A stretch of DNA of 64,000 bases. It comes from Photobacterium halotolerans DSM 18316. Its GTDB lineage: Bacteria > Pseudomonadota > Gammaproteobacteria > Enterobacterales > Vibrionaceae. Made by a program: the position numbers and the translations under genes. Below are positions 3,697 to 8,883 of the stretch, piece after piece. Under the pieces are notes generated by a model that was given only the letters and a program-made list of their open reading frames with translations, did not search any database and had not been told where the DNA came from. The stretch lies in the NCBI RefSeq assembly GCF_000425165.1, contig NZ_KE384319.1, positions 620,001 through 684,000 of the forward strand, given 5' to 3'. Within the stretch, counting starts at the first letter, position 1; the number at the start of each line of letters is the position of its first letter.

Positions 3697-3915
3697 ATGT
3701 CGCGCTTGGATTCGGTGTATATTTCAGCTGAGTTTGATTGTATGTCGCGCTTAAGTCCGGTGTTTTACTTGGCATGAACTGATGCGCGCCAGACACTCTT
3801 TGCTGGCTCAAAGAGTGCCCAGAAAAGCCTTTGATTTCGCTGGTGTTATCCGGGCCGGTTGTAGGCGCTCCCGGCGCCGACAACCTGAAAATTCGTCCTG
3901 AATTTTTCCCTGTGG
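3697..3915 (-). repeat. Inverted copy of the 234-bp hairpin repeat, left border of the integron
   Basis: The reverse complement matches the four tandem units at 7968-8846. It contains the 29-base hairpin core (3857-3885; arms GGTTGT-GGCGC and GCGCC-ACAACC), the second hairpin with arms CACTCTTTG / CAAAGAGTG in diverged form, and the tail motif AAGCGCGACATAC. The tail motif is present twice here (near 3700 and 3745). Open frames across this stretch are by-products of the repeat and are not called as genes. Confidence 0.85.
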
Positions 3916-3967
3916 GAGTGGAATACTCTAATGCTAACTCGTCAGTTTCAGATTAATATTTCTATGA

Positions 3968-4044
3968 GTTAACGCCACCAACAGCGGCCGAGCGTAGCGA
4001 GGTTCAGCGCACGTAGTGCGCGATGCTGCTTGGCTTTGTTATGC
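3968..4044 (-). other. attC-like recombination site (last cassette)
   Basis: Read on the minus strand, the site starts with GCATAACAAAG, has an imperfect palindromic interior (including GCGCAC-GTA-GTGCGC) and ends with GGCGTTAAC. This is the R''...R' layout of integron attC sites. It lies 8 bases beyond the stop of the gene at 4053-4628, as expected for the 3' end of a cassette. Confidence 0.75.
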
Positions 4045-4052
4045 ATATCGAT

Positions 4053-4628
4053 TTAGTCACATTCTCGAATTGCAATGCCGAAATCATGTTGTTTCGGCTT
4101 AGAAGCGACACCCAAAACGGTATAATTGCAACGAAGAGTAACAAATGGCTTTTTCTCAAGACGGTCTCGTGAAAGTAGATTGATATCTATTCGGATACGA
4201 GCAAATTCATTCGCCAGTAGACGAATAGGCTTGAAAGCCATGGGACGGTCTTCAACATCTTCTTGGGTAGAACGCCCTTGCCCAAGTTGCGAAATATCCA
4301 TGGTTTCTTGGTCACGTTTCACGATCTGTATGCGAAAATTTGTTCCGTCCGGGTCACGAATTTCAAATGACTCAAGGTACACAGAGTGCGCACCAAAGTT
4401 TGCGATGGTAGCCATAACCCTATGATTAGAATCGCTCGTTACACTGTCCTCTATAGTCACAACTAGTGGTTTGTCTGGCTTTAAGGCTACGTATGTATCT
4501 TTGGATGCGTCATATGCAAATTTCCCCAAGGATACAAGCGCGCTGGCAGTAATAGATTCAAGCAATGCTTTGGGAGACGTCGGAGCGTCGTTCTGTATAT
4601 CATCAGAACGTTGATTCTTTTTGTTCAT
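4053..4628 (-). CDS. Integron cassette protein of unknown function, 191 residues
   Basis: I do not recognise the family. The N-terminal 25 residues are polar. A possible amphipathic or weakly hydrophobic helix follows (ALLESITASALVSLGKFAYD, about 22-41). From residue 55 to the end the pattern is beta-rich (KPLVVTIEDSV, VMATIANFG, VYLESFEIRD, RIRIDINL, PFVTLRCNYTVLG), like an immunoglobulin-type sandwich. There is no signal peptide. The gene runs away from the integrase and is bracketed by attC-like sites at 3968-4044 and 4659-4762, so it is the last cassette of the array. Its AT-rich composition differs from that of the moa and fdhD genes. Confidence 0.75.
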   Translation of the reverse strand: MNKKNQRSDDIQNDAPTSPKALLESITASALVSLGKFAYDASKDTYVALKPDKPLVVTIEDSVTSDSNHRVMATIANFGAHSVYLESFEIRDPDGTNFRIQIVKRDQETMDISQLGQGRSTQEDVEDRPMAFKPIRLLANEFARIRIDINLLSRDRLEKKPFVTLRCNYTVLGVASKPKQHDFGIAIRECD

Positions 4629-4658: not shown

Positions 4659-4762
4659 GCATAACGCCTATGTAAGAGGCATTTTTTCGTCGCTCGTTTT
4701 GTGCTATTTAAGCACAAAGCGAGCGACGGGAAAACGTCCTTCTTGACATATTTGTTATGTGC
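4659..4762 (-). other. attC-like site between cassettes, about 104 bp
   Basis: The minus strand reads GCACATAACAAAT at one end and GGCGTTATGC at the other. In between is a long stem whose arms include CGTCGCTCGC-TTTGTGCT and AGCACAAA-CGAGCGACG. The site abuts the stop codon of the HNH gene (4764). Confidence 0.85.
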
Positions 4763-4763
4763 T

Positions 4764-5660
4764 TTACGAACCAAGTTCAATGTTAAATTCACGAAGAATC
4801 TCAACTCTCGCATCACTTATCGCTTGTTCATCAATCCTGTAGTACTCATCAGGATTGGCCACCATCGTAGATAAGCTCATATTTATAATTTGATTTTCAC
4901 TTGAAATAAATTTTGGTGTTTTAGGAATGCAGCTTCGAAGCGCAACTATCTCACCGAGGGCAAGTTTATGTGAGGGAAATCTAGTATCTCTTTCATCTTC
5001 TTGCCTTACCCATTTCCTTAACCGTTCCAGCGTCTCTCCGTTTAAATAGTTTTTTGTGAGGTATCCATCACAAATGCACAAAATAAGTGTTAATGAGCCT
5101 ATCTTGAGCAAAATACTACTTGGGTCAACTAGAGTTACGAGGTCTGTATTAGTATTGCTTGTTTTGAAAACATATAGGCTCGATGGCAATTGAAAACCAT
5201 GGCCATTTTTATACGACGTTCGAACATACTCGAAGTTTTTCCCCGAAACAACGAATGAACAGATATCCCTCCATTCCTCATCTTGAGTTGAAATCAAATC
5301 ATAGTAGAAGAGCCCGTAATATATTTTAGATAACCATGTAGTAATTATTTCGGATACCGATTGACCTGGCCCATACATCATAAGGATTCCTGGCTCTTCT
5401 GATTTTATAGCCTCATAGAGAGCGTCAAGATCATCAAGGAGCTCAAGCACTTTGTTTTCATACTCACTGCCAAATTCGCTATTGCAGCTCGAGTGTGCAG
5501 GAACCTTTATCCGACTATATTGACTTTCCTTACGTCCAGTAATAGTCTCTTCTTTAATTCTGAGCCTCCCAAGAAGGCTGTTTGGAATGATATGTTCTAA
5601 CGTCTTTTTCTCTTCAATTTCTTTATTGCAAAAGAAGCAGACCCTTCTTAGATCGTTCAT
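4764..5660 (-). CDS. HNH-endonuclease-like cassette protein
   Basis: The 298-residue protein opens with an HNH/treble-clef layout: VCFFCNKEIEEKKTLEHIIP (Cys-x2-Cys then E-H-I-I-P, residues about 8-27), then HSSCNSEFG about 30 residues later. The zinc-binding cysteines and the catalytic His of HNH nucleases are therefore all visible. The remaining 220 residues are unrecognised, with a hydrophobic beta stretch near 185-200 (SILLKIGSLTLILCICDG). It occupies its own cassette, between attC-like sites at 4659-4762 and 5690-5761. HNH proteins of this size are often nucleases of restriction or phage defence, but that role is only inferred here. Confidence 0.78.
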   Translation of the reverse strand: MNDLRRVCFFCNKEIEEKKTLEHIIPNSLLGRLRIKEETITGRKESQYSRIKVPAHSSCNSEFGSEYENKVLELLDDLDALYEAIKSEEPGILMMYGPGQSVSEIITTWLSKIYYGLFYYDLISTQDEEWRDICSFVVSGKNFEYVRTSYKNGHGFQLPSSLYVFKTSNTNTDLVTLVDPSSILLKIGSLTLILCICDGYLTKNYLNGETLERLRKWVRQEDERDTRFPSHKLALGEIVALRSCIPKTPKFISSENQIINMSLSTMVANPDEYYRIDEQAISDARVEILREFNIELGS

Positions 5661-5689: not shown

Positions 5690-5761
5690 ACATAACGCCG
5701 TGCTCACCGGTAAATTAGGAGCGTAGCGAGTAATTTATCCGTGTGCAGCACTTTGTTAACT
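5690..5761 (-). other. attC-like site, about 72 bp
   Basis: The minus strand reads GCAGTTAACAAAGTGCTGCAC ... GTGAGCACGGCGTTATGTGC. The arms GTGCTGCAC/GTGAGCAC can pair around the interior GAGCGTAGCGAG stretch. The stop codon of the upstream cassette gene (5756-5758) lies inside the R'' end. Confidence 0.85.
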
Positions 5762-6511
5762 GCCGATTAGTGCAGGAGGATTCAGCATCCACACAATTAC
5801 AAACACAGCTATGGCACCTGTTGCCCTTATAGAAAACTTTTGAAATCTAGATTCCACCGTTAATAGTCCAGGAATGATAGCTGCGATAGCAGCCAATGAA
5901 ATTGCAAATACTCCTCGAAAAATAAAGAACTGCGTTGTTGTAGGGCTAGGAATAAATACCGCAAGAAGGATTATTATTAAAGCGAACAGTACTCCGACAA
6001 TAAGGCCAGCTATAAGCTGCCATTTAGGTGTTTCTTTCAAGTCATTTGCTCCAGAGTATTCAAACCCTTTCGTTGGTAGGTTGTTCTCATTAAACAGGCT
6101 TTTTAGTTTCTGCCACTGTTCCTTTTGAAGATATTCTTTCGTCATTCTCTGCATATTTGCGTATGTAGAGTCGCCGGGGTGTTCTAGAGCACCGACAAGA
6201 ATCTCAGAGTAGCTACGAAGAAAATTAACATGAACTACAAACGCTTTTAAGACGCTGTGGCATGTCTCTGCGAAGCCTGTAATCCATTTCCCATTTGCAT
6301 GGGCCCCTAATAGCCCACTATTTCCAACAAAGTTTTCAATATAATTAAAATAGCTCGCACCTAATTTTTGGCATTCTAATAAATCCTGAAGAGACGGTTC
6401 TTCTGCCTTTTCATGGATTTTAATTACGATCGGATTTAGGTGCGCCATGTAGGCTTGTTTAAGCTTTTCGATTTCAGCCTCAGCGTGAATGACTGCCTGC
6501 TCATTAGTCAT
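5756..6511 (-). CDS. Three-helix membrane protein, last gene of a three-gene cassette
   Basis: A 251-residue protein with a soluble helical N-terminal part (about 1-160) and three C-terminal membrane segments: WQLIAGLIVGVLFALIIILL (about 165-184), FRGVFAISLAAIAAIIPGLL (about 196-215) and ATGAIAVFVIVWMLNPPAL (about 229-247). The C-terminal IPG...GA(I/L)AVFV...NP pattern resembles a membrane module I recall from many bacterial conflict proteins that carry effector-associated domains; this is from memory and was not searched. It starts 3 bases after the stop of the preceding small gene and is almost certainly co-translated with the two paralogous small proteins. A pore or membrane effector is a possible role. 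Confidence 0.75.
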   Translation of the reverse strand: MTNEQAVIHAEAEIEKLKQAYMAHLNPIVIKIHEKAEEPSLQDLLECQKLGASYFNYIENFVGNSGLLGAHANGKWITGFAETCHSVLKAFVVHVNFLRSYSEILVGALEHPGDSTYANMQRMTKEYLQKEQWQKLKSLFNENNLPTKGFEYSGANDLKETPKWQLIAGLIVGVLFALIIILLAVFIPSPTTTQFFIFRGVFAISLAAIAAIIPGLLTVESRFQKFSIRATGAIAVFVIVWMLNPPALIGS

Positions 6512-6514
6512 AAT

Positions 6515-6760
6515 TTATTTTGTCGTTTTCGTTGCTAAAAGAAGCAAAGTAGTCAGGTCAGTATTGTCAACACCTTCCAATGCCATGCATTCATATGAAC
6601 CAACTACATCATAAACTATCTTTTCAATATCAGTCTTTGAGGCTGAGCGACCTAATTTTTTAATTCGGTTGCCAATTTCACGAAGTTCATCTTCAGTTGG
6701 AGACCAATCAGTAATCAGAAGTGCTGCTTCTAGTTCTCTTTTTAAATTTGTTATGCTCAT
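6515..6760 (-). CDS. Small cassette protein, paralogue of its upstream neighbour
   Basis: An 81-residue, probably all-helical protein of unknown family. It aligns with the 83-residue product at 6771-7022: both have P-T at 19-25, an I...I..L helix, S..D...IV, and a closing G-(A/V)-D-x-(S/T)-DL-x-TL-x-x-LATK motif. It lies 10 bases downstream of its paralogue and 3 bases upstream of the membrane-protein gene, so the three form one cassette transcript. Two diverged copies of one small domain next to a membrane protein suggest partner subunits or a sensor/adaptor pair. Confidence 0.7.
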   Translation of the reverse strand: MSITNLKRELEAALLITDWSPTEDELREIGNRIKKLGRSASKTDIEKIVYDVVGSYECMALEGVDNTDLTTLLLLATKTTK

Positions 6761-6770
6761 ATCAGTTATC

Positions 6771-7022
6771 CTACTTCTTTGTTGCTAATTGCATTAGGGT
6801 AATAAGATCAGAAGTATCTGCACCTTTGTAAAGGTAAGTGCCAGCACCAGGGCAATGCTTTCGAACAATATCTGCCCAGTCTTGTTCTGAAGGGGTAATA
6901 CCCTTTGCTACGAGAGCTTGTATATCTTGCTTTATTCGCTCTAGTTGATGAGGGGTTGGATCATTTGGTGCAGTACCAAACTTAATTTTTATTCTATGAG
7001 CTAAGTCTTGATCACTATTCAT
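6771..7022 (-). CDS. Small cassette protein, first gene of the array
   Basis: An 83-residue helical protein of unknown family, paralogous to the product of 6515-6760 (shared ending GADTSDLITLMQLATKK versus GVDNTDLTTLLLLATK). As the first gene after the attI region it would be the best-expressed cassette if a Pc-type promoter is present. A GGAACTC stretch 5-11 bases before the ATG is only a weak ribosome site. The similarity to its neighbour is direct sequence evidence that both are real genes rather than chance frames. Confidence 0.7.
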   Translation of the reverse strand: MNSDQDLAHRIKIKFGTAPNDPTPHQLERIKQDIQALVAKGITPSEQDWADIVRKHCPGAGTYLYKGADTSDLITLMQLATKK

Positions 7023-7053
7023 AAGAGTTCCTTGTGTAGTTCAATTTAAGGTA

Positions 7054-7120
7054 GTTAACATTTTATTAGCGCGCATGCGCGTTTTGCTCGTTAGACCAGT
7101 GAAAACGCGCACAGTTAACT
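7054..7120 (-). other. attI-like region between intI and the first cassette
   Basis: Two GTTAAC core-like sites (7054-7059 and 7114-7119) flank a perfect 10-bp inverted repeat, TGCGCGTTTT / AAAACGCGCA (7076-7085 and 7102-7111). The position between the divergent integrase and the first cassette is where attI should be. The structure could also be read as a small attC of an empty cassette. Confidence 0.55.
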
Positions 7121-7224
7121 ATCTGTATGTTAAGAACTTATCAGCTTTCTACCAAATACACCATCTGGAAAACGCGCAAAAATTTTTCACTATTTTCCTT
7201 GATATCCGGCAATCTTAAATAATA

Positions 7225-7240
7225 CTGTATAAAAAAACAG
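7225..7240 (+). promoter_or_regulatory. LexA box upstream of intI
   Basis: CTGTATAAAAAAACAG matches the CTG-N10-CAG LexA operator with an AT-rich centre. It lies 22 bases before the preferred integrase start. SOS control of integron integrases by LexA at this position is established for Vibrio and mobile integrons. Confidence 0.8.
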
Positions 7241-7261
7241 CATCTTAAGGTGGGGGTTATC

Positions 7262-7936
7262 ATGAGTGTAAAAAGCCCATTTCTAAGCGGTCTTCAAGAA
7301 GAAATGCGTATGCGTGGTTACAGTATTAGAACGGAAAAAACCTATCTGTATTGGATCAAGGCATTCATTAACTTTCACGACAAACGTCACCCTGAAACAA
7401 TGGGAACGAAAGAAATTGCACAATTTTTAACCTTTCTTGCCAATCGACGAAATGTGGCTATCAACACACAAAAAATTGCACTGAACGCATTAGCCTATCT
7501 GTATCAGAAGCATTTGCACCATGAGCTTGGGGATTTAGGTTTTTGCTATGCCACTAAACAGCGACATTTACCGACAGTGTTATCTCCATTGGAGATCTCA
7601 TCGATATTAAATCAACTTCATGGCCGAGACAGGCTAATCATTGAGATGCTCTATGGTAGTGGACTGAGAGTTTCAGAATGTCTCCGGTTACGCGTCCAAG
7701 ACATTGATATTGATAGAGCTTCGCTGACTGTTAGAGACGGTAAAGGACATAAAGATAGACAAACCATCCTCAGCCATAGATGCGCAGAAAAGCTCACTAC
7801 ATATATTAAAAAAGCTATTAAGATTCAACAGGATGAAAACCAACAAGGGATAGGCCCATCTCTGCCAAATGCATTAGAACGTAAGTACCCCAATGCGCGA
7901 CATACCCTCCAAACCCCAAATTACACTTGCTATTAG
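7262..7936 (+). pseudogene. intI: Truncated integron integrase (IntI-type tyrosine recombinase)
   Basis: The first about 210 residues are a clear IntI: N-terminal SAM-like domain with MRMRGYSIRTEKTYLYWI, catalytic box I GSGLRVSECLRLRVQDID carrying the first active-site Arg, the GKGHKDR strand with the catalytic Lys, and the start of the IntI-specific insert ending at LPNALERKYPNA. At about 7893 the frame runs into the tail of the hairpin repeat and stops after about 13 unrelated residues. Full IntI proteins have about 320 residues, so the HxxR box, the last His and the nucleophilic Tyr are missing. The protein cannot be a working recombinase. ATG 7262 is preferred over GTG 7250 because it follows AAGGTGG at normal spacing. 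Confidence 0.88.
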
Positions 7937-7967
7937 CGTTAGCACATATGCTGGTAAGTACCAACCC
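7893..7967 (+). repeat. Partial repeat tail fused to the broken integrase
   Basis: The sequence GCGCGACATACC marks entry into the tail of the hairpin repeat (compare AAGCGCGACATACC in the full units). The remaining about 60 bases are poorly conserved. This is the junction that removed the 3' end of intI. Confidence 0.6.
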
Positions 7968-8206
7968 AGGGAAAAATTCAGGACGAATTTTTAGGTTGTC
8001 GGCGCCGGGAGCGCCTACAACCGCCCCGGACCACACCAAAGAACAAAAGGGCTTTCTGCTGGGCACTCTTTGGCCCGACAAAGAGTGTCTGGCGCGCAGC
8101 ATACCATGCCAAAAGAAATACTAAACTCAAGCGCGACATACCTTCATATCTTACTTGAAGCACTTACCCTCAACACCCCAAAAACGCCAAAGAAACCCAC
8201 TCCCCA
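7968..8206 (+). repeat. Hairpin repeat unit 1
   Basis: The unit begins AGGGAAAAA. It has a strong hairpin at 7994-8022 (arms GGTTGT-GGCGC / GCGCC-ACAACC), a second hairpin with arms CACTCTTTG / CAAAGAGTG, then CTGGCGCGCA and the tail AAGCGCGACATACC. Its length is 239 bases. No credible gene is encoded; the reading frames across it follow the repeat. Confidence 0.85.
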
Positions 8207-8440
8207 AGGGAAAAATACATGGACGAATTTTTAGGTTGTCGGCGCCGGGAGCGCCTACAACCGCCCCGGACCACGCCAAAGAACAAAAAGGGCTTTCTGG
8301 GCACTCTTTGGCACTACAAAGAGTGTCTGGCGCGCGTCACACCATGCCGAAAGAACCACCGAACTCAAGCGCGACATACCTCAGCCGTACCAGAATCCCC
8401 AGCCACAACACCCAAAAACGCCAAAGAAACCCACTCCCCC
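8207..8440 (+). repeat. Hairpin repeat unit 2
   Basis: A 234-base unit with the GC-rich hairpin at 8234-8262 and the second hairpin at 8302-8325 (CACTCTTTG-GCACTA-CAAAGAGTG). It is highly similar to unit 3 over its whole length, including the spacer rich in CCAAAAACGCCAAAGAAACCC. Confidence 0.87.
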
Positions 8441-8673
8441 AGGGAAAAATTCAGGACGAATTTTTAGGTTGTCGGCGCCGGGAGCGCCTACAACCGACCC
8501 GGACCACACCAAAGAACAAAAAGGGCTTTCTGGGCACTCTTTGGCACTACAAAGAGTGTCTGGCGCGCATCACACCATGCCAAGAAAACCACCTGATTCA
8601 AGCGCGACATACCTCAGCCGTACCAAAATCCGCAGCCACAACACCCAAAAACACCAAAGAAACCCACTCCCCG
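8441..8673 (+). repeat. Hairpin repeat unit 3
   Basis: A 233-base unit with the GC-rich hairpin starting at 8467. It shares both hairpins, the GCGCGACATACC tail and the CAAAGAAACCCACTCCCC end with unit 2. Confidence 0.87.
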
Positions 8674-8846
8674 AGGGAAAAATTCATGGACGAATTTTCA
8701 GGTTGTCGGCGCCGGGAGCGCCTGCAACCGCCCCGGATCACGCCAAAACACAAAAAGGGCTTTCCGGACACTCTTCGGCTCGACAAAGAGTGTCTGGCGC
8801 ACATCAAACCATACTGAGAGAAACACCAAACACAAGCGCGACATGC
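8674..8846 (+). repeat. Hairpin repeat unit 4, shortened and diverged
   Basis: The hairpin core starts at 8701. The second hairpin is changed to CACTCTTCG / CAAAGAGTG, and the unit ends soon after AAGCGCGACATGC, so it is about 60 bases short of a full unit. Degeneration at the array end is typical of tandem repeats. Confidence 0.8.
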
Positions 8847-8883
8847 AGAACCACCAAACCACAAAGTAAACGGGTACAGACAT

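What the first reader, a model, noticed from the sequence alone, without database searches (positions are those of the whole stretch)
5756..7022. Three-gene integron cassette: two paralogous mini-proteins plus a three-helix membrane protein
Three genes are packed with gaps of 10 and 3 bases into one cassette between the attI region and an attC. The two small products (83 and 81 residues) share an ending G-x-D-x-x-DL-x-TL-x-x-LATK and an internal S..D...IV pattern, so they are paralogues. The third has a helical cytosolic part and a C-terminal three-helix module resembling one I recall from conflict-system proteins. Most cassettes carry one gene; a co-translated sensor/adaptor pair with a membrane effector would fit an abortive-infection or toxin-antitoxin system. 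I know of no described system with this layout.
Basis: partly seen in the sequence, partly recalled or inferred. Interest (0 to 1): 0.85.

Follow-up and report, generated by a model that had tools for sequence, protein, structure and literature searches.

The report
Mobile membrane-protein operon with paralogous mini-proteins
A three-gene integron cassette makes two related small proteins and a membrane protein, and the same family turns up in phages and plasmids at sites known for anti-phage genes, which makes it a good but untested candidate for a new bacterial defence system.

Summary
Three minus-strand genes (83, 81 and 251 aa; gaps 10 and 3 bases) form one cassette between the attI side of a truncated intI and an attC. 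The small proteins are true paralogues. The membrane protein has a helical soluble part and three C-terminal TM segments.

The trio recurs in 8 of the 20 distinct loci I collected; 17 of 20 have at least one small partner directly upstream, 13 of 20 two or more. Partners share a C-terminal motif (roughly G-x-D-T/N-S/T...L-L); in enterobacterial-type loci some are tiny ORFs with little beyond it.

Loci sit in integrons, plasmids, filamentous phages and both lysogenic-conversion sites of P2-like phages (A–Q, where old/tin lie; G–FI, where fun(Z) lies). Related filamentous prophages carry Fic, AbiJ-type or DpnII-type genes at that spot. No Pfam or NCBIfam family reaches its cut-off and no PADLOC match is convincing; only PHROGs of unknown function fit.

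Best reading: an uncharacterised mobile defence or exclusion module, a membrane effector gated by cytosolic motif-bearing partners. Function is inferred from context. A published study that tested lysogens of four P2-like phages, one carrying the duo, reports protection only for another.

The parts
6771..7022 (-). gene a: small protein without TM segment, 83 aa, C-terminal motif GADTSDLITLM
   Evidence: orthologues in L002, L003, L004, L005, L020, L047, L053; dN/dS 0.03-0.10
6515..6760 (-). gene b: paralogue of a, 81 aa, C-terminal motif GVDNTDLTTLL
   Evidence: phrog_6502 E 2e-7 and phrog_31842 E 2.5e-6; paralogy to a; dN/dS 0.08-0.19
5756..6511 (-). gene c: 251-aa protein, N-terminal helical soluble domain (about 1-155) and three C-terminal TM helices
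   Evidence: phrog_5814 E 4e-48; dN/dS 0.06-0.11
5690..5758 (-). attC closing the three-gene cassette; it overlaps the stop codon of gene c
   Evidence: fold (modest); DNA homology with L002, L003, L004 ends at or near its end
7040..7249 (-). attI/leader region between intI and gene a; GTTAAC core at 7054-7059
   Evidence: sequence; homology to other cassettes starts at 7059 (L002, L003) or 7041 (L004)
7262..7936 (+). integron integrase gene, truncated before its C-terminal part; the dispersed repeat begins at 7965
   Evidence: TIGR02249 E 3e-67, profile 1-212 of 315, on a translation begun one codon after the ATG
4764..5660 (-). next cassette gene, 298 aa, HNH_5-like N-terminus
   Evidence: PF14279 E 5.5e-6, 26.6 bits against a cut-off of 27.5
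4660..4758 (-). attC of the HNH cassette
   Evidence: fold z -8.0, 0 of 200 shuffles as stable
4053..4628 (-). third cassette gene, 191 aa, no family above cut-off
3965..4048 (-). probable attC of the third cassette, called by eye from its end motifs
   Evidence: sequence; its fold is not better than shuffles (z -0.2)

Best explanation
A mobile anti-phage or anti-rival-element module of the membrane-effector type. Gene c makes a membrane protein whose soluble N-terminal bundle faces the cytosol and whose three TM helices act on the inner membrane. Genes a and b make cytosolic partners that dock through a shared C-terminal helix motif and hold or switch the effector; when infection changes one of them, the effector oligomerises or opens and stops the cell or the incoming phage. 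Shown: gene anatomy, paralogy, recurrence, purifying selection, mobile context, shared motif. Inferred: topology, binding of the motif to protein c, sensing, and membrane damage or arrest.
For: Full trio in 8 of 20 distinct loci; at least one motif-bearing small partner directly upstream in 17 of 20 and two or more in 13 of 20. Purifying selection on all three genes. Two P2-family sites: between A and Q in L020, where P2 has old and tin, and between G and FI in the P2 DC1 record and an E. coli prophage, where P2 has fun(Z), annotated as blocking T5. PMC9122126 calls the A-Q site a hotspot of anti-phage systems (section 10) and PMC9519451 calls the fun site a second defence-enriched locus (passage). 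E. coli filamentous prophages beside hipAB carry relatives at a site where others carry Fic, AbiJ_NTD4 or DpnII-MboI-type genes; relatives of the two types cover at least 80% of the query in 22 and 8 of 5,426 E. coli genomes. Known defence genes lie near some loci: HamA in L008, ThsB 2.4 kb from L011, an Abi_C gene by L002, a retron-type RT fragment next to L009.
Against: No functional test. PMC9122126 tested lysogens of four P2-like phages, DC1 among those isolated, and reports protection only for AC1, though with a small phage panel that the authors name as a limitation. No PADLOC family matches any of 17 membrane relatives better than E 0.0023. Neighbours were scanned in only part of the loci, and those of L003 and L004 (4 proteins) matched no PADLOC family; HamA and the TIR gene of L011 were named in annotation before scanning, so that evidence is selected. 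The TM module also occurs on unrelated proteins. Three of 20 loci (L008, L009, L031) lack a recognised motif-bearing partner. The P2-type duo is rare: 1 of 5,426 E. coli genomes.
Confidence: 0.5

Rival explanations
1. Superinfection exclusion: the membrane protein, tuned by its partners, blocks entry or receptor use of related phages without killing the host.
For: Carried by temperate P2-like phages and filamentous phages; the host survives with a filamentous phage, which fits non-lethal exclusion better than suicide.
Against: Also in integron cassettes, where no resident phage profits; the two small proteins of the window have no TM segment.
Confidence: 0.2
2. Toxin-antitoxin or addiction module: c is a membrane toxin, a and b neutralise it, and the module stabilises mobile elements.
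For: Small genes directly before a membrane gene, also on plasmids; a Fic gene at the same filamentous-phage site in one prophage.
Against: One to four paralogous partners per membrane protein would be unusual for an antitoxin (judgement from general knowledge); three of 20 loci have none recognised; no Pfam or NCBIfam family reaches its cut-off.
Confidence: 0.15
3. Host-physiology cargo (envelope stress, transport or signalling) unrelated to conflict.
For: The TM module is attached to other soluble domains elsewhere; no convincing defence profile.
Against: Patchy distribution, the window's own genome counted each time: 2 of 197 family-level, 1 of 369 class-level, 6 of 398 phylum-level and 5 of 394 order-level genomes, some by the TM module only and some genomes in two of the searches; repeated presence at defence sites of phages.
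Confidence: 0.15

Closest known systems
P2 fun(Z), old and tin (lysogenic-conversion genes)
   Same: same two genomic sites in P2-like phages
   Different: tblastn with the window's protein c at E <= 0.1 matched 2 phage records, OU784750 and NC_070905, and not the reference P2; fun(Z) is a single 528-aa gene
UPphi filamentous phage accessory ORFs h3-h5 (PMC7307601)
   Same: the E. coli filamentous prophages probably carry these ORFs; the paper reports h3 in 221 of 229 and h4 and h5 in 56 and 57 genomes and discusses ECONIH2, which is listed (passages)
   Different: identity of h4/h5 with the small and membrane genes is inferred, not tested by sequence; the passages read give no function and no wider family
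phrog_5814, phrog_6502, phrog_31842
   Same: sequence families matched by the membrane protein (phrog_5814) and by small protein b (the other two)
   Different: annotated as unknown function; protein a matched none of them at E <= 1
RexAB, CBASS and retron membrane effectors (recalled)
   Same: logic of cytosolic sensor plus membrane effector
   Different: no PADLOC model matched protein c at E <= 1; no sequence relation found

Membership tests
Integron gene cassette | lies between attI and attC, transferable as a unit | tested here: met
   attC fold, modest; shared cassette boundaries with L002, L003, L004; integron integrase profile on the neighbouring truncated gene
phrog_5814 | profile match over the full length | tested here: met
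   E 4.1e-48, residues 13-248, profile 13-230 of 230
Known PADLOC defence system | profile match to a system component | tested here: not met
   proteins b and c: no family at E <= 1; protein a: PD-T7-4 at E 0.042 over 27 residues; 17 relatives of c: best E 0.0023, one member
Toxin-antitoxin system | toxicity of one product, neutralised by the other | not testable with these tools
   needs expression tests
Abortive-infection system | protects the population while infected cells stop or die | not testable with these tools
   no phage assay here; published lysogen tests report protection for AC1 only, not DC1
Known fold in PDB or BFVD | confident structural match of protein c or b | tested here: inconclusive

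The most novel reading that the evidence does not exclude
A previously undescribed immune architecture in which one membrane effector is read by a changeable array of one to four cytosolic partners that all end in the same docking motif; some partners are little more than the motif on a low-complexity tail, so the array would act as several independent tripwires for different invaders.
Probability: 0.25. Interest if true: 0.85.

Novelty: new variant of a known kind. Interest (0 to 1): 0.6.

Why it matters
If defensive, it would be a new family carried by integrons, plasmids, filamentous phages and P2-like phages, with a simple and testable logic (motif partners on a membrane effector). Relatives already exist in E. 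coli and in a P2 phage, so it can be tested at once in laboratory strains.

Tried and rejected
Pfam, NCBIfam and PADLOC gave only sub-threshold or generic hits for the trio. Structure searches of proteins c and b gave no confident match; helical-bundle matches were set aside as common arrangements. Protein a was not modelled. Profile searches against PDB sequences gave only weak hits: one synaptonemal-complex protein for c (E 0.053), 13 sequences, mostly troponin C, for the small proteins (best E 0.022). A crude attC scan by script found 1 site in the first 12 kb of the window and none in 16 loci; it was too strict, missing the attC at 5690, and attC claims rest. tblastn of protein b in plasmids found nothing. 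Viral-contig scans with single proteins gave nothing new. A promoter scan found 2 promoter-like sites against 1.0 expected, so nothing can be said. Literature searches answered; six protein accessions of relatives were in 0 papers. A recalled paper on phage defence in mobile integrons did not appear in the listings.

Rows dropped: L033 and L034 (remnants of the membrane gene), loci with the TM module only (L028, L035, L036, L050-L052, L054) and repeats of one locus or of near-identical phage copies (L021-L023 and L029 with L007; L030 with L026; L037 with L025; L049 with L006; L001 and L027 with the window) are not in the count of 20. L009 lacks the first N-terminal part. L006 was aligned only over its first 257 residues. 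Of the E. coli matches, 161 genomes had some match; the 139 with less than 80% coverage were not examined.

Full report
What is there. Window 5756-7022 holds three minus-strand genes: a (6771-7022, 83 aa), b (6515-6760, 81 aa) and c (5756-6511, 251 aa), with gaps of 10 and 3 bases. They form the first of three cassettes beside an integron integrase gene that is cut short: TIGR02249 matches only to profile position 212 of 315. The minus strand between gene c and the next cassette folds as an attC, with modest support on its own (z -2.0). The second cassette carries an HNH_5-like gene and has a very strong attC fold (z -8.0); the third carries an unknown gene, and its attC is called by eye (z -0.2).

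The small proteins are paralogues. Direct BLASTP is not convincing (E 0.079), but the profile of seven a-type proteins against six b-type proteins scores 52.3, E 1e-9, while 30 column-shuffled controls reach at most 19.7. In the four closest trios (window, L002, L003, L004) dN/dS is 0.03-0.10 for a, 0.08-0.19 for b and 0.06-0.11 for c, so these are real, constrained proteins.

The cassette recurs. A genome-contig scan gave five relatives, four with the same three genes. In L002 and L003 homologous DNA begins at the GTTAAC core before gene a (in L004 18 bases further in) and in all three it ends at or near the end of the attC, so this is the same travelling cassette. L048 is homologous through the attC region as well, but has a single small partner. 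L005 and L020 keep the three genes without the attC; homology in L047 ends part-way into it. Whole-genome searches added L047, L048 and L053. The family is patchy: 2 of 197 family-level, 1 of 369 class-level, 6 of 398 phylum-level and 5 of 394 order-level genomes matched, the window's own counted each time, some genomes in two searches and some matches covering only the TM module.

The set I count is 20 distinct loci: the window, L002-L011, L020, L024, L025, L026, L031, L032, L047, L048, L053. The complete trio is in 8 (window, L002-L005, L020, L047, L053). At least one small partner with the motif lies directly upstream in 17 of 20, and two or more in 13 of 20 (three in L024, four in L025); L008, L009 and L031 have none recognised, though L031 has an 89-aa ORF in that place. 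In enterobacterial-type loci some partners are ORFs of 46-71 aa with little but the motif. Against shuffled versions of themselves, scored with a motif matrix built from 14 larger partners (some from the same loci), two of four tested are never equalled in 20,000 shuffles and the others are equalled in 11 and 20 of 20,000. A scan of 430 ORFs of 40-130 aa from twelve loci (two of them copies of one module) puts partners of the system in all of the 22 top rows printed, among them tiny ones in L024 and L025 that I had not noticed.

Where the relatives sit. In the P2 DC1 record and in an E. coli prophage the duo lies between G and FI, the place of fun(Z) in reference P2. In L020 the trio lies between genes A and Q of a P2-like phage, the place of old and tin. 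PMC9122126 (section 10 and passages read) describes the A-Q site as a hotspot of anti-phage systems; PMC9519451 (passages read) names the fun site as a second defence-enriched locus. E. coli filamentous prophages carry relatives: 22 and 8 of 5,426 genomes at 80% coverage or more for the two types, against 1 of 5,426 for the P2-type duo. Of 54 genomes that share the filamentous phage's replication region I looked at 7 others; at the copy viewed they carry a Fic gene, an AbiJ_NTD4 gene, a DpnII-MboI-type nuclease with a DUF6953 gene, a zinc-protein with an unknown gene (two genomes), or unknown genes (two genomes). PMC7307601 (passages read) reports accessory ORFs h4 and h5 in 56 and 57 genomes with such phages; that they are these genes is my inference.

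Neighbours. HamA lies beside L008 on a plasmid with intI1, ThsB 2.4 kb from L011, an Abi_C gene and a NYN gene on either side of L002, and a fragment matching a retron RT model (RT_VI, E 1.6e-34) directly upstream of L009. Neighbours of L003 and L004 matched no PADLOC family. I scanned neighbours in only part of the loci, and HamA and the TIR gene were already named in annotation, so this is support, not a measured enrichment.

Protein c. The model has an N-terminal helical domain (block means of pLDDT 70-94 over residues 1-150), two TM helices at about 63-78 and a third below 55. The loop between TM2 and TM3 is positive (3 K/R, 1 D/E), which weakly favours a cytosolic N-domain. The TM module also occurs near the N-terminus of unrelated proteins in L028, L035, L036, L050 and L051 and within another in L052. 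No fold match is confident.

Reading. I think this is a mobile defence or exclusion module with a membrane effector and cytosolic partners. Against it: no functional test, and lysogens of four P2-like phages were tested in PMC9122126 with protection reported only for AC1. The distribution, the sites and the layout argue for conflict; the mechanism is inference.

Noticed in passing
window 7965-8874 (+) and 3740-3921 (-): Tandem repeats of about 233 nt on one side and an inverted copy on the other flank the integron remnant; 73 matches in the own genome, many clustered.
   Followed up: partly
window 7262-7936: The integrase gene lacks its C-terminal part and the dispersed repeat begins 29 bases after its last base, so the array is probably no longer shuffled by it.
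   Followed up: partly
window 4764-5660 and 4053-4628: Two further cassettes, one with an HNH_5-like gene, one unknown.
   Followed up: no
L028, L035, L036, L050, L051, L052: The three-TM module of protein c occurs on unrelated proteins: a TPR-like one (by eye) in L028, one annotated DUF4019 in L036, others unknown.
   Followed up: partly
L038-L044: The cargo site of E. coli filamentous prophages beside hipAB carries varied toxin- and defence-like genes; among them a 369-aa protein (L041) and a 159-aa protein (L040) matched no Pfam or PADLOC family at E 0.01.
   Followed up: partly
L009 607-1164: A fragment matching retron RT models, best RT_VI, lies directly before the membrane gene.
   Followed up: no
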